A DNA stretch of 64,000 nt from positions 1 through 64,000 of the forward strand of contig DDKG01000004.1 of the NCBI GenBank assembly GCA_002339265.1, given 5' to 3'. Below are positions 6,919 to 29,324 of this stretch, in pieces. Source of the DNA: Massilia sp. UBA2604. GTDB lineage: Bacteria; Pseudomonadota; Gammaproteobacteria; Burkholderiales; Burkholderiaceae_D. The stretch's first letter is position 1. Every line of letters starts with the position of its first letter. The notes beneath the pieces are model-generated. The model did no database searches and was not told the origin of the DNA. It worked only from the letters and a program-made list of their open reading frames with translations. The translations under genes were made by a program, and so were the position numbers.

Positions 6919-7091
6919 TTCTTAGTGTCGTCCGGTTGGGTGGCTGAGGCCTTGTTGTCAATCGCCCTCAGGTCGCTGTAGTAGCGCGACGAGCCGCGGT
7001 TCGCGCGATAGTTCTTGATCGCGTCGTAGTCGGCCTGGGTCATGCCTTGGCTGTCGGCGCTGCGCGCGCGATAGGCGCGGCGCCGCTTCAT
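6915..7091 (-). CDS. Small basic protein (58 aa)
   Basis: The ATG at 7089-7091 overlaps the rdgC stop and the TGA overlaps the next ATG. The product starts MKRRRAYRARSADSQGM and is rich in Arg, Tyr and Asp, with no hydrophobic segment. A nucleic-acid-binding role is possible from charge alone. It is too short for many gene finders but is held between two coupled genes. Confidence 0.6.
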   Translation of the reverse strand: MKRRRAYRARSADSQGMTQADYDAIKNYRANRGSSRYYSDLRAIDNKASATQPDDTKK

Positions 7092-7987
7092 GATTTGGCC
7101 TCGCCGCCAAGGGCTTCGACCAGATCGGCCAGCAGCTTGGCCAGCTCGCCGGACATGAGGACGAAGGCGTTATCGAAACGCTCAGCATCGTTCGCCGCCG
7201 CGGCTTCGTTCTCGCGGATCACGTCGAGCGGCTTCACGCCCTTGATCGCCAGCGAGTCGGTCAGCACGAAGCTGATGCGGTCGTTCCAGGTCATGGCCAG
7301 GCGGGTGCACTGCTTGCCGGCGGCGATGTGGCGGCGGATGTCTTCCGGCTCGAGGGTGTGCGACTTGTATCCGATCTGGGCGCGGCTCTCGCCGGTGGCG
7401 CGCAGCGTCGCATCGCGGTCGATCGTGAAGCCGTATGGCGATTCGTCGGCCTCCAGCCAGCCGGTCATCACGGCGACCGGCGAGCGCTGCACGCGCAGCG
7501 ATTCCAGCGGCATGTTGTCCACGGCCTTGAGTAGCAGCTTGACGACGTCGTCGGCCTTGCCCGGCGCCGCGGCGTCGACCACCAGCCAGCCGTTCTTCGG
7601 GTCGATCCACACCAGCGTCGTGCGGGAAACGGAGAATGCCTTCGGCAGCATCTCGTCCGCAGCGCGCTCCTTCAGCTCGCGCATTGCCTTCTTCCCGGGC
7701 GGGAATCCCTGCTGCTCCTCCAACTCCGCCGCCATCGCCTTGGCGCGCTCGTTCACGGCCGCGCCCGGCAGGATCTTCTTCTGCGTCTTGAGCGCCAGGA
7801 GGAACTGGCCGGCCACTTCGTGCGCCAGCGCGTCGTCCGCGCCGCGCGGGCGGGCCCAGCCTTGGCGCAGCAGCTCGTTGCTCGACGCCGGCACGAAGGC
7901 CTGCGGCTCGAGGTATTCGGCCAGGCGGGCGACCGTCATGGCCCAGGGGGAGGGCAGGCGGTACACCTGCAGGTTGCGGAAGAACAT
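7088..7987 (-). CDS. rdgC: Recombination-associated protein RdgC
   Basis: The 299-residue product matches RdgC throughout: MFFRNLQVYRLP at the start, a GFVPP-like QAFVPASSNE segment, ERAKAMAAELEEQQGFPPGKKA, and a C-terminal RFDNAFVLMSGELAKLL. RdgC forms a ring dimer on double-stranded DNA and modulates RecA. Phage copies are common in recombination modules and may protect or remodel phage DNA. ATG 7985-7987 was chosen because the family starts MFF/MWF. The sequence is full length, and the gene lies in the repressor-controlled leftward operon. Confidence 0.93.
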   Translation of the reverse strand: MFFRNLQVYRLPSPWAMTVARLAEYLEPQAFVPASSNELLRQGWARPRGADDALAHEVAGQFLLALKTQKKILPGAAVNERAKAMAAELEEQQGFPPGKKAMRELKERAADEMLPKAFSVSRTTLVWIDPKNGWLVVDAAAPGKADDVVKLLLKAVDNMPLESLRVQRSPVAVMTGWLEADESPYGFTIDRDATLRATGESRAQIGYKSHTLEPEDIRRHIAAGKQCTRLAMTWNDRISFVLTDSLAIKGVKPLDVIRENEAAAANDAERFDNAFVLMSGELAKLLADLVEALGGEAKS

Positions 7988-8015
7988 TTGCGGATCCTTG
8001 TCGTAGTGGTCGGGG

Positions 8016-8138
8016 TTACAGCGGCGCGCTCGGGTCAACGGCGCCGCCCAGGCAGATCAGGGCGAAGAGCAGGGCGAACATCAGGCCCGGGCGGCGCTCG
8101 CACCAGTCGAGGCGGAAGAAAAGCAGGAAGCGGATCAT
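8016..8138 (-). CDS. Tiny membrane protein (40 aa)
   Basis: An ATG at 8136-8138 opens a 40-codon frame: a first hydrophobic patch (IRFLLFF), a charged turn, then LMFALLFALICLGGAV. It sits in the 168-base space between the 145-residue gene and rdgC in the leftward operon and follows a purine-rich GGAGACCGAC stretch. Coding is inferred from hydrophobic pattern and position. Confidence 0.5.
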   Translation of the reverse strand: MIRFLLFFRLDWCERRPGLMFALLFALICLGGAVDPSAPL

Positions 8139-8156: not shown

Positions 8157-8594
8157 TTAATGCGCGTCGCGCAGTTCGGTCAGGCGCTGGATCGCAGCGC
8201 GCACGATTGCGGCCATCGCCGCGGCGTCCTGGCTCGGGTGATCGGCGTAGGCCTCGCTCACGTTGCGCCGGCCGCTGCCCACGCTGACGGAAACGGTGCC
8301 GTCTTCCTGGTCGTGGCGGATGCTCAGACCAAGCTCGGTGCTGAGCGGCCCCGCCGCGTTCCAGCTGCGGCGCCAGTGCGGCGGAACCTGCGGCGTCATC
8401 GTCGAGAAGGTCAGCCGCGAGTTGTGGCCGCTGAACGGATGCGTGGTCGTCGGGCGCACGTAGATGAGCGGTGCGTCGAGCGTCAGCTCGGTTGGCGCTT
8501 TGTAGGTGCGGCGCCACTGCGCGTGAAGCTTCGCCAGCGCGATCTCATCCGCGAAGGCTTCGGCCAGGTATTCGTTGTCCCACTGCTTGGTCAT
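8157..8594 (-). CDS. First gene of the leftward early operon, unknown function
   Basis: This 145-residue protein has a helical N-terminus (WDNEYLAEAFADEIALAKLHAQW) and a C-terminal QDAAAMAAIVRAAIQRLTEL helix. It is the promoter-proximal gene of the leftward operon; CTGGAGAG precedes the ATG. The start lies about 60 bp downstream of a repressor-like operator and predicted promoter. No domain is recognised. Confidence 0.75.
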   Translation of the reverse strand: MTKQWDNEYLAEAFADEIALAKLHAQWRRTYKAPTELTLDAPLIYVRPTTTHPFSGHNSRLTFSTMTPQVPPHWRRSWNAAGPLSTELGLSIRHDQEDGTVSVSVGSGRRNVSEAYADHPSQDAAAMAAIVRAAIQRLTELRDAH

Positions 8595-8654
8595 GTAGCT
8601 CTCCAGTTTTCTGCGGCTCGGGAGGTGCTGAGCTCGCTGTCGTTGGAGTCATTA

Positions 8655-8717
8655 TTAGGCATCCCTAAAAACAAATCAACAAATTAATTGAGGTATGCCT
8701 AAATATTTAGGTAAAAT
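8655..8717. promoter_or_regulatory. Divergent early promoters with CI-type operators
   Basis: Two 14-bp palindromic sites, TTAGGCATCCCTAA (8655-8668) and TGAGGTATGCCTAA (8689-8702), plus a half site TTAGGTA near 8707, match those at the cI/cro region. On the plus strand TTGAGG (8688-8693), an 18-bp spacer and TAAAAT (8712-8717) form a promoter whose -35/spacer is covered by the second site. On the minus strand TTGATT and TAATAA flank the first site. Repression of both directions by the prophage repressor is inferred. Confidence 0.72.
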
Positions 8718-8723
8718 GTGTTC

Positions 8724-9031
8724 AACGGCCGAGTCTGGCTGTTTGCACGCCTGGAGCAGGGAGGGGAAACCGCCGACGCCCAGGTCTAAGAGCCAAGGAC
8801 GACCGGAAGGGCAACGCGTGGGTGGATCGTAGAGCGCGCCGGGGGACAGGCAGGGATGCCTGGGAAGTCTGCGAACAAGCGAAAGTGTCCGAAGGCGAAA
8901 GCATGGGATGCAGTAGCCCTCCACGGGGGTCGGTAGATGCCGGCCCTTCTAGGGAGGGTTACGCTCTGGAACCGAGGCTCTGCTGGGATAAAACGAAGCC
9001 AGGAACTTAGAAAGACCTACCTGAACAGCCA
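8724..9031 (+). ncRNA. Predicted ~300-nt structured RNA
   Basis: No convincing ORF crosses this stretch, but complementary segments nest as in a folded RNA. TGGCTGTT (8736-8743) pairs with AACAGCCA (9024-9031). CAGGCA/TGCCTG (8847-8862) closes a GGGA loop. CCCTCC (8917-8922) pairs with GGAGGG (8953-8958) around a GGGTCGG/CCGGCCC hairpin (8927-8946). GGTT/AACC closes 8957-8973. Several GAAA loops occur. It begins about 7 nt after a predicted -10 in an operator-controlled promoter. I do not recognise its class; ends are approximate. Confidence 0.6.
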
Positions 9032-9085
9032 AGAACAGAACTTGAACAGTACCTTTACAGGGTGCGTAGGAAAAAAGGCCCGAAA

Positions 9086-9454
9086 ATGTCGCAAAAATTG
9101 ACGCTGGCGCGCTACCTGGAGGGTAGGGGATCGGTGAAGTCGTTGACCCGCATCGAGGCGGAAGCATTCGGCGTCCCGTACCCCCTCATCTCGGGCTGGC
9201 CAGCACGTCACGGCACTCTCGAAATCACTGCGGACATGCTCAACAATCTCCGTGCCCGGATATCCAACGCGAACCGGGCTACAGCGAACAGGGCAAAGAA
9301 CGGATTGATCGGCCTCGGCGCTTTGTCCAGCGTACCTTCGGCGTGCTGCCAAGCGAATAATCTACTACCGACTCCGCCTCAATCGCTCAATGGGTTCGTT
9401 CTGCGTAAGGCAAAACGCTATAGCACCCGATCGGAGAGACTGCCAAAGTGTTAA
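9086..9454 (+). CDS. Small protein downstream of structured RNA
   Basis: From the ATG at 9086-9088 the product has 122 residues; an upstream in-frame start adds eight. The N-terminal 75 residues look conserved and folded: LTLARYLEGRGSVKSLTRIE, then GVPYPLISGWPARHG and EITADMLNNLRARI, ending in a short helix. The last 45 residues look unstructured. It shares the presumed transcript of the RNA at 8724-9031, so it could act with that RNA. No domain is recognised. Confidence 0.6.
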   Translation: MSQKLTLARYLEGRGSVKSLTRIEAEAFGVPYPLISGWPARHGTLEITADMLNNLRARISNANRATANRAKNGLIGLGALSSVPSACCQANNLLPTPPQSLNGFVLRKAKRYSTRSERLPKC

Positions 9455-9537
9455 AAAACTAACACATAGTGATGGACGGAAAGACGGTAAACGTAGTCGA
9501 GAAGCTTAGTTGCTGCGTGGAAATTGGAGAGATTCCC

Positions 9538-11244
9538 GTGGATAATACGTCACCTCTGCGGCTCGATCCGCGCACATCCCATATCCCCAGAATGAAAAAC
9601 CTCAGTATTAAACGCTTGATCGCGATTGTTATCGGCGCGCTCATCATTCTTACGCTATTTGTTGGCGTGCTCGGATACCGGTCCACACAACGCTCAGTCG
9701 AGCTCCTCGAGGGGCAGGCATTACGCTCATCGGTCCAGCAGTTGGGCATGTCGGGCCTGCAGTTGCGGATGGAAATGAACCGCAGCCATATTCTGCAGGC
9801 ACTTCAACATAATCCTGAGAATAAGCATGCGGCATTGCATAACCATCCCTTGTCGTTCCACAGCGATTTCATCGCAAGCAATAGTCAAGCGCTGCTCAAG
9901 GAGCACAACGCAATGCAGGCAGGCCTGAGGCGCCCTGAAACTCGCGAGAAATTCCAGGCGTGGACGACTGCCAGCGACGAAATGGGGATTCACCTTATCA
10001 GTAACGCAATGCGGGCCATTGAGGCGGGCGACTGGGACAAGGCCAACGAGGACCTCGGCAAGAAGATTAACCCGACCTATAACAGGTCAATGGCTGCCTA
10101 TAAGGAGATCCAGTCCTTCATGAGTGAACGGAATGTCGCGCAAGGCGTGGCGCTCCATGAGGAGCTTTCGATTTTGAACGCCGTGATGATTTCCGCAGTA
10201 ATTGCTGCAGTTTTACTGAGCTGCGGTGCGGCTATGTATCTGATCCGGGCCATCGGCACTCCACTATCCCAGGCCGTTGAAGTAGCGCGGCGCGTGGCCA
10301 GCGGAGATTTGTCCTCGCAACCTCAGGTGGATTCTCGTAACGAATTTGGGCAACTACTTGGCGCCTTGGGCGACATGACGTCTAGCTTGGCTGGAATCGT
10401 CAAAGATGTACGGGCCGGCAGTGAGGTCATCTCGACGGCGTCAACCGAGATCGCCGCAGGAAATATGGACTTGTCATCGCGAACTGAGCAGCAGGCCAGC
10501 GCGATCGAAGAAACTGCGGCCTCGATCGAGGAACTGACGAGCACGGTTCGACAAAATGCTGACAACGCTCGCCAGGCCAGCGAACTTGCGGCCTCTGCGA
10601 CCGAAATCGCAGTTCGCGGCGGGACGGTCGTAACCGAAGTGGTAAGTACCATGGGCGAGATCAACGAATCGGCCCGTAAGATCGTCGACATCATCAGCGT
10701 CATTGACGGAATCGCGTTCCAGACGAACATCTTGGCCCTGAATGCCGCGGTGGAAGCAGCGCGCGCGGGTGAACAGGGTCGTGGTTTCGCCGTGGTGGCG
10801 AGCGAGGTGCGCAACTTAGCGCATCGTTCGGCCAGTGCGGCGAAAGAGATCAAGGAACTGATCAGTGATTCCGTTGGCAAGGTGGACGTCGGCGCGCGAC
10901 TTGTGGACCAGGCCGGCGCGACGATGGAAGAAATCGTCCAGGGTGTGCAACGTGTCGCCGGCATCATGGGCGAGATCAGCGTAGCGAGCGCGGAGCAAAG
11001 GTCTGGCATCGAGCAGATTCACCAGGCCATTAGCCAGATGGATCAGTCGACGCAGCAAAATGCCGCCCTGGTTGAAGAGGCGGCAAGCGCCGCCGTGTCG
11101 ATGCAGGAGAGCGCAGCAAGCCTGGCTGACCGGGTGAGTGTGTTCAAGATCGGCGATACGCATAGTCCGAAAAGCACCGGCGCTGGGTCCACAATGGACG
11201 CCCGTGGTGCTGCCCAAGCATATCGGGTGAGACTATCTGCCTGA
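9538..11244 (+). CDS. Methyl-accepting chemotaxis protein
   Basis: A transmembrane helix ([20 protein letters not shown]) starts the receptor, followed by a four-helix periplasmic sensor of about 170 residues, a second helix ([20 protein letters not shown]), HAMP and the cytoplasmic signalling hairpin with the tip block around [20 protein letters not shown]. No NWETF-type pentapeptide ends the protein. A GGAGAG site precedes GTG 9538, giving 568 residues. The ATG at 9592 would match family starts better but lacks a ribosome-binding site. It is not a phage structural or replication gene, so it is probably lysogenic cargo. Confidence 0.92.
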
Positions 11245-11518
11245 TCGGATCTTGAACCGACGACATCAAGCTCACCCCTGCCATGCTCGAGGACCTGACG
11301 CAGCGCATAGCCGTCGCACGACGGTCGACGGCGAGCAAGGCGCTGCGCGGCCTGGATGGCGCTGGTAGGCCAGGCTCAGCTCGTCAACAAGATGAGCGCA
11401 GCACCTCGCCAACATTACGACCTCGCCTTGAGCCGCAGCGCGCCGCGGCCTCGCCATCGTTCCCTGGTTTTCTGGTGCGCCCCCCCGAAGCGCGCGCGAT
11501 CATCCAGGGTAGGGCGTG
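11245..11518. other. Intergenic stretch without recognisable gene
   Basis: This 274-base interval follows the chemotaxis gene. A plus-strand frame of 78 codons runs through it, but its Arg/Ser-rich composition and lack of a ribosome-binding site make coding doubtful. It may be a decayed gene remnant. Only the two hairpins at its right end are interpretable. Confidence 0.4.
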
Positions 11519-15100: not shown

Positions 15101-16600
15101 TTAGCCTAATCCGAACATCGCCGCAATCGAGATGTGCGCATAGCGGGAGTACTTGTTAAGCGTGCGAACTGATGGCCAGATGTAGAGATGGTCAGGGAAG
15201 TCGGCGACCGGGATCAGATAAGTGGCTTCGATCCGTTCATTAGAGCGATCCGCTCGCACCCAGATGATGAAGTCCACTGGCGGCGTGTGCGCGAGCGCAA
15301 CTTTCCAGCACGCATGGCTCCGCTCGTACCGACACCGTGTGCAAAGTAGGCGGGCAGTTACCCCGTTGAACCGATATGTGCGTGGGCTGAGCTTTTCGAC
15401 CTGGGCGTTCGCCGCGGCCGCGCATCGCTCGAGCTCGATCGTCATGTCACGGGTGATGCACCGCATCCGATACCGGATGATGGCGCTTTGGGTGAGGGAT
15501 GGCCAGCTCACCCCAGCGAGACCCATGGCGGACGTGATGCCATTAAAGCGCGCGGCATACGATTTCACGGCTGGACCGCCGCTGGCATTGATCAAGTCCG
15601 GAGTGACCTTGCCGTGCTCGACAAATATCTGGCGGAGTGCATCGAGCATTTCATCATCTGACCATTGCCGGCGCCGGTGCTTTCGTTCGTCGCGTGCCGC
15701 CTCGAGCCTATCGCGTGGCACAATCGCGTCAAATGCGTCATCTACCTTGACCCAAGTCGCCAAGGCGTTGGCGCGGCGAGAGCTTTTCAGGCGCTGCGTG
15801 CTTCTGTTGAATACCAAGGTGCCCGCGTACTTGTCGTTCGTGAGAACCTGCTTGACGTGGTACGGCGACCAGGTCCGGCCGAACTCATTCGCGATTCCCT
15901 CATTGTTGAGGCGACGTGCGATGCCTGTGTCGGTCATGCGCTCACCCAGGTACATGTCGTAAATGCGGTGGATGACGGCCACCTCGTCGTCTGGGCCTAG
16001 CGTGTAAGTTACGCGGTCAGTCGGCATAGACTTGCGCTCGCCGGCGCCGAGCAGGCCCTTCGGCTGTCCGGTCGCAGAGATCACGATGCGGCGCAGTCCA
16101 TAGCCAGCCAGGCCGCCTTGCTTGAACCCGGCTTCAGTGAGGCGGCACTGCGCTCGAAACACTTTCGCTGACAGCTCGCGACTATACTCGGCGGCCATGG
16201 CCCGCTTGAGGCCCTTGAGCACGGCCGCGAGAGGTGATCCGTCGTTCGTGAAAGGCTCCGCGCAGTACGCGACGGCGATGCCAGCCCGGCGGCAGGCATA
16301 TTCGTAGTAGGCGCTCTCGTCGACGTCCTGGAACCGGCCCCAGCGGCTCACGTCATAGACCAAGACAACATTGAAGTCGGCACGGCCGGCTTGAATATCG
16401 GTTAGCAGTTCCAGCAGACCAGCGCGCCCATTCAAGGTAAGACCGCTGCGCCCCTGATCGCGGTATACCTTCACGATTGCGAAGCCGTGCGCCCCAGCGT
16501 ATTCCTGCAGCGCGGCCTCTTGATGCTTGGTCGAGTAATTCTGGTGCTCGGTCGATGCCCGTAGATACAGCGCGGCTCGGTCGGCGTATGCCTTCAGCAC
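15101..16600 (-). CDS. Large serine recombinase A
   Basis: The N-terminal resolvase/invertase catalytic domain contains the nucleophile in YLRAST (Ser16), the DQGRSG motif and VVLVYDVSRWGRFQD. A recombinase domain follows (GYGLRRIVI, TDTGIARRLNNEGI, LTNDKYAG). The last 200 residues are unusual, ending IAAMFGLG. Length 499 fits large serine recombinases. The GTG start follows GGAGG and overlaps the end of recombinase B. The prophage already has a tyrosine integrase, so this gene probably belongs to a nested element or has another DNA-rearranging role. Confidence 0.9.
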   Translation of the reverse strand: MLKAYADRAALYLRASTEHQNYSTKHQEAALQEYAGAHGFAIVKVYRDQGRSGLTLNGRAGLLELLTDIQAGRADFNVVLVYDVSRWGRFQDVDESAYYEYACRRAGIAVAYCAEPFTNDGSPLAAVLKGLKRAMAAEYSRELSAKVFRAQCRLTEAGFKQGGLAGYGLRRIVISATGQPKGLLGAGERKSMPTDRVTYTLGPDDEVAVIHRIYDMYLGERMTDTGIARRLNNEGIANEFGRTWSPYHVKQVLTNDKYAGTLVFNRSTQRLKSSRRANALATWVKVDDAFDAIVPRDRLEAARDERKHRRRQWSDDEMLDALRQIFVEHGKVTPDLINASGGPAVKSYAARFNGITSAMGLAGVSWPSLTQSAIIRYRMRCITRDMTIELERCAAAANAQVEKLSPRTYRFNGVTARLLCTRCRYERSHACWKVALAHTPPVDFIIWVRADRSNERIEATYLIPVADFPDHLYIWPSVRTLNKYSRYAHISIAAMFGLG

Positions 16601-18123
16601 GTGGCCTCCAGCGAGCCACGGCTATCGAGACCGAACATCGCGCCTACAGTCGGATACCGTACGCGAGCGAATTGGTCGAGGTTCGAATCCTTCAAGTAGA
16701 TCGTGCCTAGTGCCAAGTCATCTCGGCTGAAAAGGAAGTAGTCAGCTACGACCCCCGCGATCGGTTCCATCCGGCCCACGATAGTGAAGTCGGCATTTGG
16801 GCTGCCTCGAATTCTCCAGTTCCGCTGGCCGCGCCGAGGGTTTCGCGGGACGGCAATCTCGATCAGGACTCGAAGGCGCCCATTTATGAGGACTCCGGTC
16901 TGGTCGTCTATCGGGTGGGTGGTCCCGCCGGCGGCCACGGTGAGAGTTTCGACCTCGTGCCGAAGCCCGGCGCATGCCGCGGCGAGTAGCCGTTTCGTCG
17001 CCACGAACGCATATTTTGGGGAATCTGGCAGACCGGCCGCTTTGTAGGCGCTCATGAGGGAGCCAAACGTGCGCACCAGCAACTGCGGATCCGGCATCAG
17101 GGGGTCGGCTGCGATAATCTTCGCGTTCACGGCCCCATGCCGGTCGTGGCAGGCCTGAAGAAGCGCAACCTGCTCATCTCGAGTGGGTCGCCTCAGTCGA
17201 CGTGCGCGCTCTGCCTGGACTCGAGCAAAGACCTCGGCATCGATGATCGGAGCGACCGCTTCCTGCTTCACGATCCATTGGTCGGCAGCGTTGCGAGTTC
17301 GACGGGTAGAGAGCTTGCACGAGCGCCGGTTGTAAGCGAGGGCCCCACAATACTTCACGTTCGTCAGTAGCGAATTGATCATCGCTTGCGTCCATGGCCG
17401 GCCAAACTCGCTTGGCACCGCCTCGCTGTTGAGTAAGCGCGCGAGACCGGCTTCACTGGCGCCTTGCTCGAGGTAGAGGGCGTACAGGCGCCGCACTGTA
17501 GCCACTTCGTGCTCAGGACCCAAGACCAGCACAACGCGATCGGTTGCGGATATCTTCGACTCGCCGTATTCGAGAATGGCACGCGGCGTGCCGCAAGCCT
17601 TTAGCGCCAGGCGCCGAAGGCCATACCCAGCATGTCCACCTTGTTTGAAGCCCATCGCAATGAACCTGGCCTGCGCGGCGAACACCTTCTCGGAAAGGTC
17701 GCGGCTGTATTCGGCCGCCATAACGCGCTTCATGCTCTTGAGAAGGGAGGCATACGGTCCTGCATCGTCGGCGAAGCGCTCGCCGCAATAGGTGACTTTG
17801 ATCCCCGCGCGCCTGCAGGTGTGCTCGTGGTATGCAGCCTCGTCGATGTCTTGGAATCTCCCCCATCGACTGATGTCAAATACAAGAATCTGGCCGAAGT
17901 CGGGCGTCGCTGACTGAACGTCACGCATGAGTGCGAGCAGGCCCGCACGCCGTCGAATGTCCAGGCCGCTTTTGCCATCGTCGACGTACTCGCGAATGAT
18001 CTCGATGTCGCGCGCGGCTGCGTATTCCTGGATCCTGGCTCGCTGGTGGTCTGTCGAGTAGTCCTGACTCTCGGTCGACATGCGGACGTACATCACAGCA
18101 CGATTTGCGGCGTAGTCGACCAT
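16594..18123 (-). CDS. Large serine recombinase B
   Basis: The 509-residue paralogue of recombinase A has its catalytic Ser16 in YVRMST, then DDGKSGLDI, ILVFDISRWGRFQD, MAAEYSRDLSEKVF and a recombinase domain ending LLTNVKYCGALAYN. The C-terminus closes with VGAMFGLD, matching A. ATG 18121-18123 was chosen over an earlier in-frame start because GGAGG precedes it. A and B are co-transcribed and overlap by seven bases, so they may act as a heteromeric pair. Confidence 0.9.
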   Translation of the reverse strand: MVDYAANRAVMYVRMSTESQDYSTDHQRARIQEYAAARDIEIIREYVDDGKSGLDIRRRAGLLALMRDVQSATPDFGQILVFDISRWGRFQDIDEAAYHEHTCRRAGIKVTYCGERFADDAGPYASLLKSMKRVMAAEYSRDLSEKVFAAQARFIAMGFKQGGHAGYGLRRLALKACGTPRAILEYGESKISATDRVVLVLGPEHEVATVRRLYALYLEQGASEAGLARLLNSEAVPSEFGRPWTQAMINSLLTNVKYCGALAYNRRSCKLSTRRTRNAADQWIVKQEAVAPIIDAEVFARVQAERARRLRRPTRDEQVALLQACHDRHGAVNAKIIAADPLMPDPQLLVRTFGSLMSAYKAAGLPDSPKYAFVATKRLLAAACAGLRHEVETLTVAAGGTTHPIDDQTGVLINGRLRVLIEIAVPRNPRRGQRNWRIRGSPNADFTIVGRMEPIAGVVADYFLFSRDDLALGTIYLKDSNLDQFARVRYPTVGAMFGLDSRGSLEATC

Positions 18124-18177
18124 ATAGCCTCCAATTTTGATGTTGCGCAAAAGGCCGCAAATTCTTTGGGAGACTAT

Positions 18178-18396: not shown

Positions 18397-18651
18397 CGGT
18401 TGCCAATGAATCGGCTCGAGAGAGTGCCATTCCATCATATCCGCGAGATAAGGTTCGGTCGGAAATCCCGAGTGGCCGCAAATGTCCGAGAGGTCTGGCT
18501 CGTTGAACGAAACGAGCAATATCGGCAGGTGGCCGAAACGCGGCTGCAGCCGATTGAGAATACTGGTGGCAGCTGCTTCGGTCGGCCAACAGCTGTTAAT
18601 CTTGACCACCGCAACGCGTACGCAGCAGAGGTCCATAACTACACACTGCAC
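18361..18651 (-). CDS. Small protein in repressor operon
   Basis: The 96-residue frame starts at a GTG that shares one base with the repressor stop; an ATG five codons later is an alternative. It shows regular hydrophobic spacing: RVAVVKINSCWPTEAAATSI, LQPRFGHLPILLVSFNEPDL. Its 3' end overlaps the convergent small gene by 36 bases. Co-transcription with cI suggests expression in the lysogen. No family is recognised. Confidence 0.6.
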   Translation of the reverse strand: MQCVVMDLCCVRVAVVKINSCWPTEAAATSILNRLQPRFGHLPILLVSFNEPDLSDICGHSGFPTEPYLADMMEWHSLEPIHWQPLPEIVEPALPF

Positions 18652-19361
18652 TAATAATGTTCTCGTTCGCTACGAACCACGCGACCGATGATGATGCACT
18701 CAGCGCCCTTGCATAGTTTTCGGTGGTATTCCTGGGCACGGTTGTCGGAAACCAGGTACCAATCGCCGGCATCGCGGGTGAGGCGCTTAATCACGTCTTC
18801 ACCCTCGTAGTTGATGACAAAGACCGCGCCATCGGAAGGTTCGGTGTCGAGTTTGTTGATGAAGACAGTGTCTCCTTCGTTGAACGTCGGCTCCATACTG
18901 CGGCCGCGCACGCGTATCGCGATCAGATGCTCAGCGCGCAGTTGGCGCCGCCGCAACCAGTCGGCTGGCACGGTGGCGGTCGATCCGTCATATGGCTCCG
19001 GCTCGACTCCGAAACCGCTTACTCCAGCCGAGACCAGAAGGCGTACCTTCGGGATGTGCACGAAAGCTCCGCTGTCTGGGTCGGCGGCGGCGACTAGCTT
19101 GACGTCTTCGATTCGATCAGCCGACGGCGCCTTGGCTGGCCCAGATCCCTTGCCATGCAAGAGCCACATCGGATCGATCCCGAGCACCTCACAGACCTTC
19201 GTCAGTCGGATGCCCGATATTTCCTTGATGCCGCCATCAGCGACACTCTTCTCCCAGTCGGTAGCCGTAGGCGGCGAGATGCGAACGGCCTTCGCAAAAT
19301 CACTCTTGCTTAGCCCCTTTGCAGCGCGTGCTTCGGCCAATCTTAGTTTCCATTGTTCCAT
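18651..19361 (-). CDS. CI-like prophage repressor (HTH + S24 peptidase)
   Basis: The 236-residue product has an N-terminal XRE helix-turn-helix (RAAKGLSKSDFAKAVRISPPTATDWE) and a LexA/CI-type S24 autoprotease domain. The Ala-Gly cleavage pair lies in LVSAGVSG, the catalytic Ser in VRGRSMEPTF and the Lys in EDVIKRL. RecA-stimulated self-cleavage would induce the prophage. The start codon overlaps an operator (19361-19374), so it is probably autoregulated. Sites of the same type occur 10.7 kb away. Confidence 0.95.
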   Translation of the reverse strand: MEQWKLRLAEARAAKGLSKSDFAKAVRISPPTATDWEKSVADGGIKEISGIRLTKVCEVLGIDPMWLLHGKGSGPAKAPSADRIEDVKLVAAADPDSGAFVHIPKVRLLVSAGVSGFGVEPEPYDGSTATVPADWLRRRQLRAEHLIAIRVRGRSMEPTFNEGDTVFINKLDTEPSDGAVFVINYEGEDVIKRLTRDAGDWYLVSDNRAQEYHRKLCKGAECIIIGRVVRSEREHY

Positions 19362-19434
19362 TAGGTAATCCTAATCTTTTTTTGGTGAGGCAAGCCTAAA
19401 AACGCTTGCCTAATAATTTAGGTATGCCTAAAAT
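19361..19434. promoter_or_regulatory. cI/cro operator array and cro promoter
   Basis: Sites TTAGGTAATCCTAA (19361-19374), TGAGGCAAGCCTAA (19386-19399) and TTAGGTATGCCTAA (19418-19431) lie between the divergent genes, with a partial site near 19406. The rightward promoter is TTGCCT (19406-19411), 17-bp spacer and TAAAAT (19429-19434). The third operator covers its spacer and -10. A further site, TTAGGCATACCGAA, lies inside the cro gene at 19549-19562. Confidence 0.8.
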
Positions 19435-19440
19435 GGATCC

Positions 19441-19659
19441 ATGAATCGAGACATTACGCCCGATGAAATCATCGACGCCCTGGGCGGGACGTCAGAAGTA
19501 GCTCGGCTATGCGAGATACAACCGCCTTCGGTATCTGAATGGCGAAGATTAGGCATACCGAAGGCGCAGCTAAAGTTTCTGCGCTTGGCGCGTCCAGCCG
19601 TCTTCTCTGACCTGGGTCTTGCCGAATCGGTTCCCCGTCGCCGTATTGGCGACGTCTGA
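19441..19659 (+). CDS. Cro/YdaS-like HTH protein
   Basis: This 72-residue protein contains a Cro/YdaS-type fold: DEIIDALGGTSEVARLCEI, PPSVSEWRRLGIPKAQLKFL. It is divergent from cI and first in the rightward early operon, and the YdaT-like gene follows. The ATG lies 7 nt after the -10 box, so the mRNA is probably leaderless; no ribosome-binding site fits in the space. It would bind the same operators to lock in lytic growth. Confidence 0.85.
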   Translation: MNRDITPDEIIDALGGTSEVARLCEIQPPSVSEWRRLGIPKAQLKFLRLARPAVFSDLGLAESVPRRRIGDV

Positions 19660-27328: not shown

Positions 27329-28072
27329 TCACATTGCTGAAACAACCTTCTTGGCCTCAATGTAGACGTCGCACTTCATAAGGAAGCTCTTGCAGAACGC
27401 GGAAAACTTAGCATTTGGCAAAGCGAGCGATTCGATTGTCATTAGTGCTTCCTTTAGTCGCCTTAATCTCCTGGTCTTTTTCGTTTGGGTGTCTGCTTCT
27501 TCTAAGTCTTTAAGTGCATACTCGATCGCTTGCGCAAATCCTTTCAAGCTAATTAGGATTTCTGCTCTCGGTTTCCAGAGGCGAATTCCCTCAAGGCTGA
27601 AGACTTCTATCGTCCTCTTTGAAATTGTGTAGTTTGCTCCGGTCTTCGCAATAACTGATATGCCTTCAAAATCAAAATATCCAGTGGGATCAGTATCATA
27701 CGGGTTCAATATCGGTTCTTTAGTCGTGTCGTGATCTGATTTTGATATGTTGCACGGGCCGCAAGCAGGGAGAAGATTGCTCCATTCGAATGTCATGTCA
27801 GGGTAGATTGATTTTGGCTGAAAGTGCTCTACCTGCAAATAGCCTCCTTCAGCGGGATGGCATTCGCAGAATGCACATTTTCCGTGTGAGCTACAACTTA
27901 AAATTGCTTGAATTTGCCTGTGACGGTAATGGGCAACGAGGGATTCCCGCTCTTGCTCAGGAATCAGCTTATAAGAGCCATATTTGGCTATTGCACTTTG
28001 CAGCGCCGTTAGCCATTTTCCACCTTCGCTAGATAAAATGGCGGGCTCTGGAAGACGGTCTAGCTTAATCAT
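27329..28072 (-). CDS. Septu-type HNH endonuclease (PtuB-like)
   Basis: The 247-residue protein has an HNH domain: CAFCECHPAEGGYLQVEHF, WSNLLPACGPCNISKSDHD, with paired Cys, the catalytic His in EHF and the Asn in WSNLL. The rest is helical. The ATG at 28070-28072 overlaps the end of the upstream ATPase gene, so the two are translationally coupled. An HNH nuclease paired with a small AAA ATPase is the definition of Septu (PtuA/PtuB) defence; no reverse transcriptase is nearby, which argues against a retron of the Ec78 kind. Confidence 0.8.
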   Translation of the reverse strand: MIKLDRLPEPAILSSEGGKWLTALQSAIAKYGSYKLIPEQERESLVAHYRHRQIQAILSCSSHGKCAFCECHPAEGGYLQVEHFQPKSIYPDMTFEWSNLLPACGPCNISKSDHDTTKEPILNPYDTDPTGYFDFEGISVIAKTGANYTISKRTIEVFSLEGIRLWKPRAEILISLKGFAQAIEYALKDLEEADTQTKKTRRLRRLKEALMTIESLALPNAKFSAFCKSFLMKCDVYIEAKKVVSAM

Positions 28073-29324
28073 GATCAAGCGCCTCAAGTGCTGCGAGCTC
28101 AGCGGTGAGGACCACTAGAATCGAATCATCCGGGTGGCAAACATTGTGAAGCTCGATCATCACTCCCTTCAACTCCTTTAGGTTCTTCTCGCGAACATTT
28201 TTCAGTGCTGCTGAAACCAATTTTTCATAAATCTTATTTTCTAGGCTTCTCACGCCCATCACATCAGATAAAATTTGATCTGTATTCCACCCCGAGTATG
28301 ACCTATTGGCAGGAGCCAGGCGAGTTGGCTCATTCGGATTGGTACGAGCGGGCATGATAATCACTTCGTTGTTATTGGCTGACGCCAACAGGTGCGGTGA
28401 GTGAGTTGTTACGATAAACTGCAGATTCGGGAAAATTCTTGATAGGCCATCTCGGATCGTGAATTGCCACTCGGGGTGCAGATGCAGATCAAGCTCATCA
28501 ATTAACACAGTTCCGGTAGCTGTCCTTACTAATCGTTCACCGGGTGCCCTCGTTTCTTCAACCCATTGAAATATGGTGCAGATAATCAGCAAAATTGCTT
28601 GAAATCCGGATGAAACTTCTTCAAGATAACATTCTTTGCCGTATATTTTGAAAATTGGTTCTAGATCCCGTTCCGTTTTAACGTAAGAGAAATTGCTGTC
28701 AAAAGGTGCAAGATATGGCAGTTGCTCGATTAGATGATTCCAGTTTGCCCGCTCTTCCTGGGCCCAATCCTTGTCGATAACAAAATATCGGTTAATAAAC
28801 CACTGTTTAATGCTGGGGGAGTGCTCTCCGTAAAGGGATTGTGTTGTTCTGTTAGAATAGGCAGATATCGAGTCTTCGACGCTTGCCTCTCTTTTTAGTC
28901 CTTGAATTTGTTCATATTTAATACTGCGTTGTGCGCCTATGAATAGCGGAACGTCAGAGCCGATAATTTCAGGTGTCTGATAGTTTGAAATAGACGTTCT
29001 GTTAGTGGCGGGAGGAGGGGTTGTCCAGCGCTTTAGCGAGCTGCTACGATACGTTGTTGAAATTCCCGCGCCCTTACCAGTGCCGACTCGGAACTTTTTG
29101 TTGCCAATTGACATATCGACCCAGAACTCGGCGTTCTCTCGAAATCTTGAGTGCGTGAAAGTCGTAGCGAAGCAATGGGATACGCCTGCGAGAACGGACG
29201 TCTTTCCGCAACCGTTCGGTCCAGCGAGGAAGTTGAAGCCGTCATTGAAAAGAACGTCCAGCTCAGGAAATTGCCGGAACCCTTCTAAGTGCAGTGATTC
29301 AATTATTGTTTTCATAATATTCAT
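28065..29324 (-). CDS. Septu-type AAA ATPase (PtuA-like)
   Basis: The 419-residue protein is an SMC/ABC-type ATPase: Walker A in FLAGPNGCGKTSVLAG (residues about 32-45), signature region VSSGFQAILLIICT, Walker B TGTVLIDELDLHLHPEWQF and the H-switch FIVTTHSPHLLAS. This is the OLD/PtuA-like architecture without a TOPRIM domain. An in-frame ATG three codons later is an alternative start. The pair lies on the opposite strand to the surrounding early and late genes and is clearly AT-richer, both signs of horizontal acquisition by the prophage. Confidence 0.82.
   Translation of the reverse strand: MNIMKTIIESLHLEGFRQFPELDVLFNDGFNFLAGPNGCGKTSVLAGVSHCFATTFTHSRFRENAEFWVDMSIGNKKFRVGTGKGAGISTTYRSSSLKRWTTPPPATNRTSISNYQTPEIIGSDVPLFIGAQRSIKYEQIQGLKREASVEDSISAYSNRTTQSLYGEHSPSIKQWFINRYFVIDKDWAQEERANWNHLIEQLPYLAPFDSNFSYVKTERDLEPIFKIYGKECYLEEVSSGFQAILLIICTIFQWVEETRAPGERLVRTATGTVLIDELDLHLHPEWQFTIRDGLSRIFPNLQFIVTTHSPHLLASANNNEVIIMPARTNPNEPTRLAPANRSYSGWNTDQILSDVMGVRSLENKIYEKLVSAALKNVREKNLKELKGVMIELHNVCHPDDSILVVLTAELAALEALDHD

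What the first reader, a model, noticed from the sequence alone, without database searches (positions are those of the whole stretch)
8724..9031. Large structured RNA gene under prophage repressor control
A 300-nt ORF-poor stretch carries at least five nested complementary segments, a closing 8-bp helix joining its two ends (8736-8743 with 9024-9031), GNRA-type loops and a predicted promoter whose -35 and spacer overlap a repressor operator. It would be the first product of rightward transcription from this locus on induction, ahead of a small unknown gene at 9086. I cannot match it to HEARO/omega RNA, GOLLD, ROOL, group I or group II introns, tmRNA or RNase P by eye.
Basis: partly seen in the sequence, partly recalled or inferred. 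Interest (0 to 1): 0.82.

Follow-up and report, generated by a model that had tools for sequence, protein, structure and literature searches.

The report
Unrecognised family of structured phage RNA
A stretch of about 300 bases in a prophage related to those of soil Massilia bacteria encodes an elaborately folded RNA of a family not yet listed in the RNA catalogue, found in several kinds of phage; in this phage it looks set to be switched on when the virus leaves its dormant state, and what it does is not known.

Summary
Window 8724 to about 9065 encodes a structured RNA without an Rfam match, even at E<=10. I collected 42 related RNAs: 31 like the window's, 11 from other phages. Pairs co-vary: a 67-pair model has 81 double-change cells against 28.7 in shuffles, 0/500; a revised core helix, with 20 distinct strand combinations, beats shuffled partners, 0/500. 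The promoter overlaps operators that recur beside an S24-type repressor. Neighbours vary: small protein F0 here, a primase gene before it in 7 of 10 distinct distant loci, an HNH gene in two. Rfam's Betaproteobacteria-1 RNA (RF02932) also sits before F0 (L031, three genomes) and after primase (two cases), though 10 of 14 RF02932 loci checked showed neither. A short variable sequence occurs twice per RNA and co-varies with itself (0/5000), unexplained. Best reading: a new family of early-lytic, probably trans-acting phage RNA; there are no expression data.

The parts
8651..8679 (-). divergent leftward promoter-like site (TTGATT-17-AATAAT)
   Evidence: consensus scan; not evidence of function by itself
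8655..8668 (.). operator 1, TTAGGCATCCCTAA
   Evidence: related sites at 19361, 19386, 19418, 19549 beside the CI-like gene
8688..8717 (+). promoter-like site of the RNA, TTGAGG-18-TAAAAT
   Evidence: a box TAnnnT lies just upstream in 28 of 29 loci by a loose pattern
8689..8702 (.). operator 2, overlaps the -35 and spacer of the RNA promoter
8724..9065 (+). structured RNA (5' end inferred from the -10 box; 3' end not determined)
   Evidence: alignments; covariation
8724..8743 (+). P1 hairpin (8724-8730 with 8737-8743); not examined in the distant RNAs
   Evidence: helices 1-2 (96.7% and 81.7% of cells paired); per-sequence list
8749..8785 (+). P2: co-varying stem with near-constant apical motif AGGGAGGGGnAACCGCCGA
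   Evidence: (38 distinct combinations, 0/500)
8792..8812 (+). P3 hairpin
   Evidence: helices 5-6; one double change only
8816..8839 (+). possible pseudoknot GCGUG (8816-8820) with CGCGC (8835-8839), crossing P4*
   Evidence: all 5 pairs stand in 19 of 24 RNAs with little variation, 1-3 of 5 in the other five as aligned; compensatory change read by eye in L075 and L077 only
8827..8874 (+). P4*: UCGUAGA (8827-8833) with UCUGCGA (8868-8874), closes P5
   Evidence: 20 distinct combinations, 0/500; replaces my first P4 model
8847..8862 (+). P5 hairpin
   Evidence: helix 9, 4 of 6 pairs with changes on both sides
8885..8911 (+). P6 hairpin with GCGAAAGC arm
   Evidence: helices 10-11 (one-sided changes only)
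8905..8909 (+). copy 1 of the co-varying direct repeat (GGGAU here; up to 10 nt in relatives)
8913..8962 (+). P7 (8913-8919 with 8956-8962) around a variable hairpin P8 (8927-8946)
   Evidence: P7 100% paired with 25 double-change cells; P8 as drawn from the window pairs in only 45.5% of cells, so P8 is not shared in that form
8985..8989 (+). copy 2 of the co-varying direct repeat
9049..9065 (+). P10 hairpin just upstream of the F0 start region
   Evidence: helix 14 (96.1% paired, no double change)
9086..9454 (+). F0: small protein (122 aa), N-terminal domain related to that of an HNH protein
   Evidence: no Pfam or PHROG match
18651..19361 (-). CI/LexA-type repressor (HTH_3 + Peptidase_S24) beside four more operator-like sites

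Best explanation
Window 8724 to about 9065 is a gene for a structured phage RNA of about 300 nt, belonging to an RNA family with no match in Rfam 15. In this prophage it would be silent in the lysogen, because the CI-like repressor's operator covers its promoter, and be made early after induction together with the small protein F0. It most likely acts in trans, as a folded RNA or a ribonucleoprotein, during early lytic growth or DNA replication. Fold, family, promoter-like site and operators are shown computationally; transcription, trans action and any target are inferred. It may do a job similar to that of the Rfam Betaproteobacteria-1 RNA, which can stand in the same places.
For: Covariation over 31 RNAs: 81 double-change cells vs 28.7+-3.9, 0/500. 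P4* with 20 distinct strand combinations and P2 with 38, 0/500 each. Distant members found by covariance models, e.g. L083 90.7 bits, L082 89.7, L086 85.0, L076 57.0. No shared reading frame. Promoter and operators with similar sites by the repressor. Neighbours differ: F0 follows in the window and in the loci found through it, no F0 match in L055, L058, L065, L067, primase just upstream in 7 of 10 distinct distant loci, HNH genes next to it in L084 and L085, so a cis role for one gene fits less well. Of 7 genomes with an F0 match among 392, 3 have this RNA and 3 have RF02932 just upstream; the seventh, a partial match, has neither.
Against: No transcript evidence. No conserved protein partner recognised across the family. 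The RNA is rare in species-representative genomes: 6 of 392 of the family sample, 1 of 369 of the class sample and 1 of 379 of the order sample (the single hit in the last two is the same Massilia genome; these runs used stricter filters that lose weak matches). Where it follows the primase gene it may simply be a 3' UTR of that operon. In Massilia-type phages conservation runs on into the F0 leader, which also fits a cis role. The tie to RF02932 is partial: 10 of 14 RF02932 loci checked had neither an F0 nor a primase match.
Confidence: 0.6

Rival explanations
1. Cis-acting leader: the RNA controls transcription or translation of the gene that follows it (F0 in Massilia-type prophages), for example as a protein-binding attenuator or antitermination element.
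For: RNA and F0 are co-oriented and contiguous, and the conserved region includes the P10 hairpin and the leader up to the F0 start. F0 is preceded by a structured RNA of one of two families in 6 of 7 genomes.
Against: By inspection the genes after the RNA differ between phage lineages, one being HNH (L084), and F0 is not matched in L055, L058, L065, L067. In 7 of 10 distinct distant loci the RNA follows a primase gene. No terminator-like site was found at 8600-9500 (1.3 expected).
Confidence: 0.17
2. Mobile RNA-plus-nuclease element: the RNA is a ribozyme or homing-type RNA that travels with an HNH nuclease; F0 is a derivative that lost the nuclease domain.
For: In L085 an HNH protein whose N-terminal domain is homologous to F0 (36% over 75 aa, E 3e-13; hhalign probability 97.0, E 1.2e-10) ends 5 nt before the R2 match; in L084 an HNH gene starts about 30 nt after it. 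The L085 protein has 97 homologues, each listed with an HNH domain; 85 of 97 align over at least 70% of it. The RNA appears in unrelated gene settings.
Against: No interrupted gene was noticed, but empty sites were not searched for. No match to intron or omega-RNA families in 22 of 22 sources scanned. Only 2 of 10 distinct distant loci have a neighbouring HNH gene that I recognised.
Confidence: 0.12
3. Replication RNA: the transcript primes or regulates phage DNA replication.
For: 7 of 10 distinct distant loci have it directly after a primase gene, in several with a helicase gene before that; RF02932 lies after primase in Acidovorax phage AP1 and in genome G205.
Against: In the window no primase was recognised among the proteins that I scanned around it, and the RNA is under the CI operator; in L084 it lies between terminase and portal genes.
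Confidence: 0.1

Closest known systems
Betaproteobacteria-1 RNA (Rfam RF02932)
   Same: Can occupy the same two places: upstream of F0 (L031, G020, G332, G079) and directly after a phage-type primase (Acidovorax phage AP1, G205). Structured RNA; L031 carries a P2-like element of the new family beside it (R1 E 3.5e-6; R2).
   Different: The new RNA does not match the RF02932 model (window at E<=10; no match at the RNA in 21 other loci). Of 14 RF02932 loci, 10 showed neither F0 nor primase within about 3 kb, and RF02932 is commoner (11 of 245 genomes over its cut-off).
GOLLD, ROOL and similar large phage RNAs (kind recalled; only a search listing seen)
   Same: Phage-borne, structured, not coding, function unclear (recalled).
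   Different: Larger (recalled); the new RNA matches no Rfam model here.
HEARO/omega RNA and HNH-associated group I introns (recalled)
   Same: RNA next to an HNH gene, in L084 and L085.
   Different: No Rfam match; no interrupted gene noticed.

Membership tests
RF02932 Betaproteobacteria-1 RNA | score above the Rfam covariance-model threshold (49.4 bits) | tested here: not met
   Window region: no match at E<=10. No match at the RNA in 21 further loci: 17 at gathering cut-offs, 4 at E<=1. Positive cases: L031 93.2 bits, AP1 93.4 bits.
RF02932 Betaproteobacteria-1 RNA | genomic place (before F0; after primase); not a defining feature in Rfam, compared as a hint at function | tested here: inconclusive
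   Shared in L031, AP1, G020, G332, G079, G205, not in 10 of the 14 RF02932 loci examined.
Any of 4227 Rfam 15 families (tmRNA, RNase P, group I/II introns, HEARO, GOLLD, ROOL and others) | covariance-model match | tested here: not met
   22 sources holding the RNA (window and 21 loci) were scanned, not all 42; the whole window at gathering cut-offs gave two tRNAs only.
CI-repressed early phage transcript | operator of the phage's own repressor at the promoter | tested here: met
   for the window. In 16 of 29 loci the same dyad recurs elsewhere in the held DNA; 13 of 29 show none, four of them holding only 1.4-4.1 kb (no chance control).
CI-repressed early phage transcript | RNA induced by mitomycin C or repressor loss | not testable with these tools
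   No expression data.
Self-splicing or homing ribozyme | catalysis; interrupted target gene | not tested
   No search for empty sites; catalysis needs the bench.

The most novel reading that the evidence does not exclude
A new class of mobile functional RNA, possibly a ribozyme or guide-like RNA, that works with F0/HNH-type proteins and uses two identical, phage-specific sequence copies as alternative partners of one strand or as paired recognition sites for a phage- or host-specific target.
Probability: 0.12. Interest if true: 0.9.

Novelty: new variant of a known kind. Interest (0 to 1): 0.72.

Why it matters
It adds a well-supported structured RNA family, without a match in Rfam, to temperate phages and shows that it and RF02932 can stand in for each other upstream of the same protein. 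That links two orphan RNAs in one testable question, with a candidate protein neighbour (F0 / F0-HNH), a repressor-controlled promoter and precise helices to probe. The co-varying internal repeats are unusual for a phage RNA as far as I know and would be informative about mechanism.

Tried and rejected
The 67-pair model still contains that first P4 and a P8 that pairs in 45.5% of cells only.

Tried without result: DNA similarity in the phage and plasmid collections for the window and for distant members; protein F0 in the same collections; R2 in the first 30-40 kb of four named phage records (one weak chance-like match, E 0.36; one of these records turned out to hold RF02932); fold search with the F0 model (best E 3.6). 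Partner strand for the repeats: the 5' strand of P6 is complementary to both copies in several RNAs (listing), but the test is not significant in the distant set (113/500 for copy 1, 169/500 for copy 2) nor for copy 2 in the Massilia-type set (180/500), so I leave it open. CsrA sites (GGA) were considered for the repeats: several copies lack GGA (list). The complement of the long copies does not occur in the held DNA of L077, L082, L083, L084, L085. Resemblance of some motifs to RNase P and SRP RNA was noticed from memory only and is not supported by the Rfam scans.

Caveats on counts: A3 holds 31 sequences, 30 distinct; the 42-sequence set adds 11 distant RNAs, of which L085 is nearly identical to L083, hence '10 distinct'. 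Left out: L003/L024 (RNA cut by the contig end), L080 (weak R2 match), L057 (same RNA as L055 by eye), other loci of contigs already used, and the RF02932-type loci L031, L042, L043. In the P4* test one distant sequence (L078) was mis-anchored by my pattern and one (L084) has a mismatch; both were kept in. In the repeat test L079 was kept although my scoring misses its shifted copy. The anchors of the repeat test were chosen after I had seen the repeats. Most relatives were found by exact P2 or core patterns, so invariance of those motifs is partly built in.

Full report
What is there. The window is a prophage whose nearest relatives include Massilia records (a Massilia brevitalea contig; protein names in the listing); its own assembly is not held. 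Between leftward genes (8157-8594, then RdgC at 7088-8038) and the small gene F0 (9086-9454) lies a stretch of about 360 nt. There is no Rfam match there at gathering cut-offs; up to E = 10 there are two matches, E 1.1 and 1.4, both inside the F0 gene on the other strand. Folding the window sequence alone is unremarkable (z -1.51), so the finding could not be judged from the window.

Relatives. F0 led to eight viral contigs; in those that reach far enough upstream the RNA region is much better conserved than F0 itself, except in L006/L031. Exact searches for RNA motifs, protein-profile searches and two covariance models (R1; R2) enlarged the set to 42 RNAs: 31 like the window's and 11 distant. 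The distant ones score 28.6 to 91.0 bits with R2. The six best matches of the L082 terminase are aquatic phages, two of them Pelagibacter phages, at 47-60% identity, so hosts outside the Burkholderiales are possible but not shown. The RNA is uncommon in species-level genomes: 6 of 392, 1 of 369 and 1 of 379 in the family, class and order samples, and 5 of 62 genomes of the M. brevitalea genus by DNA, two of these only short matches at the 5' part.

Structure. On 31 aligned RNAs (30 distinct) a hand-built 67-pair model gives 90.2% paired cells, 19 pairs and 81 cells with changes on both sides (shuffled 12.6 and 28.7; 0/500), and falls to 34-42% when partners are slid by 1-3 columns. P7 alone has 25 double-change cells with no broken pair; P8, drawn from the window, pairs in 45.5% only. 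Distant sequences then showed that one helix was wrong: UAGAGC does not pair with GCUCUG downstream but, as part of UCGUAGA, with UCUGCGA just after P5. Anchored extraction of both strands in 42 RNAs gives 20 distinct combinations whose helices exceed shuffled partners by about eight standard deviations (132 vs 97.7+-4.3, 0/500). P2 behaves likewise (38 distinct, 270 vs 218.6+-6.1, 0/500). Its apex AGGGAGGGGnAACCGCCGA is nearly constant, partly because it was used as a search key. A pseudoknot GCGUG/CGCGC crossing P4* is possible, with compensatory change only in two distant RNAs by eye.

An unexpected feature. After the P6 loop (GAACUCA in most distant RNAs) stands a variable sequence that is repeated about 70-92 nt downstream, outside the core, mostly after GAAUCUA: AGGGAUGUAC twice in L083, AGGAAAUCAC twice in L077, AGGAAGCAG twice in L084. 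The window-type RNAs share GGGAU, GGGAUA, GGGAUG, GGGGU, GGGGUA or GGGGUG between the two places. Own copies are far more alike than shuffled ones: all 28 distinct pairs 165 vs 97.8+-5.9; 10 distant 67 vs 30.1+-5.3; 18 window-type 98 vs 76.9+-4.8; 0/5000 each. The anchors were set after the repeats had been noticed, so the test measures their coupling, not their discovery. Both copies could compete for the 5' strand of P6, which fits L083, L077, L079, L082 and the window by inspection, but the test is not significant in the distant set. I record it as real and unexplained.

Control. The RNA promoter-like site (8688-8717) and a divergent one (8651-8679) are overlapped by the dyads TGAGGTATGCCTAA and TTAGGCATCCCTAA; similar sites recur four times at 19361-19562 beside a repressor with HTH and S24 peptidase domains. 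Other phages have different dyads (for example TTTACCCCTAGGTAAA or CTTTAGTTTACTAAAG) in the same place; in 16 of 29 loci a copy recurs elsewhere in the held DNA, and in at least seven it lies 23-55 nt before an ORF of one shared cluster (F1) that I take for the repressor by eye. No chance control was run for these other phages. So the RNA is at the position of an OL-type control region and should be made on induction. This is inference from sequence.

Neighbours and the known counterpart. F0 (251 homologues, the best 120 listed) has a confident helical N-terminal domain (block means of pLDDT above 80 for residues 1-70; whole model 74.9), no solved look-alike, no Pfam or PHROG family. Its domain is homologous to the N-terminus of an HNH protein that ends just before the RNA in L085; that protein has 97 homologues, each listed with an HNH domain, 85 of them aligned over at least 70% of it. 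In 7 of 10 distinct distant loci the RNA follows a primase gene (for L079 only the end of the gene is held). Acidovorax phage AP1, found through its helicase, has an unannotated gap after its primase that holds RF02932, Betaproteobacteria-1 RNA (93.4 bits). RF02932 also lies upstream of F0 in L031 (93.2 bits) and in genomes G020, G332 and G079, and after a primase in G205. Thus two RNA families with no detected sequence relation can use the same two places. The limits: among 14 RF02932 loci of about 3 kb examined, 3 had F0, 1 had primase, 10 had neither, so RF02932 has other settings too. L031 and, more weakly, L043 carry a P2-like element of the new family next to the RF02932 core (E 3.5e-6 and 0.006), as if cores were exchanged inside a shared frame. 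I treat RF02932 as a possible functional counterpart, not as the family itself.

Literature. Seven searches of the held open-access library listed no paper that I recognised as describing this RNA; I saw the listed titles and abstract beginnings only (for broad searches a small part of the papers found), plus three passages of PMC8040213. The paper that I recall as the source of Betaproteobacteria-1 is not held, so I cannot say what it reports on context, and I cannot exclude a description elsewhere.

Verdict. Existence of a conserved structured RNA family: very likely (about 0.95). Lysogeny-repressed, early-lytic expression in the window-type prophages: likely. Action in trans: favoured (about 0.6), because the RNA keeps its core while its neighbours change. 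Specific biochemical function: unknown.

Noticed in passing
window 9469-11483: A methyl-accepting chemotaxis gene (9469-11244) lies between full-length F0 and a second, different F0 C-terminal fragment (11262-11483, 61% identical over 75 residues to another phage's F0): an apparent cargo insertion, also present in the near relative G001 as far as the spacing of its two F0 matches shows.
   Followed up: partly
window 15101-18150: Two large serine recombinases in tandem, overlapping by a few bases (Resolvase + Recombinase domains); a pair of the same cluster stands in L024.
   Followed up: no
L059 7292-7486: RT-15 RNA (Rfam RF03018, 169.9 bits) about 4 kb from the new RNA in another prophage contig.
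   Followed up: no
L077 3807-3892: C4 antisense RNA (RF01695, 66.3 bits) about 2.4 kb from a distant member of the new RNA family.
   Followed up: no
window 28065-29324: AAA ATPase of the RecF/AbiEii-like type on the minus strand, possibly a defence gene.
   Followed up: no
L090 6124-6696: Five tRNAs and a weaker sixth tRNA-like match just downstream of the primase gene in an uncultured phage, where some related phages have one of the two structured RNAs.
   Followed up: partly
L026, L028, L030, L033-L036 and other window-type loci: Sister prophages share the layout but have different operator dyads, a set useful for immunity-group studies.
   Followed up: partly
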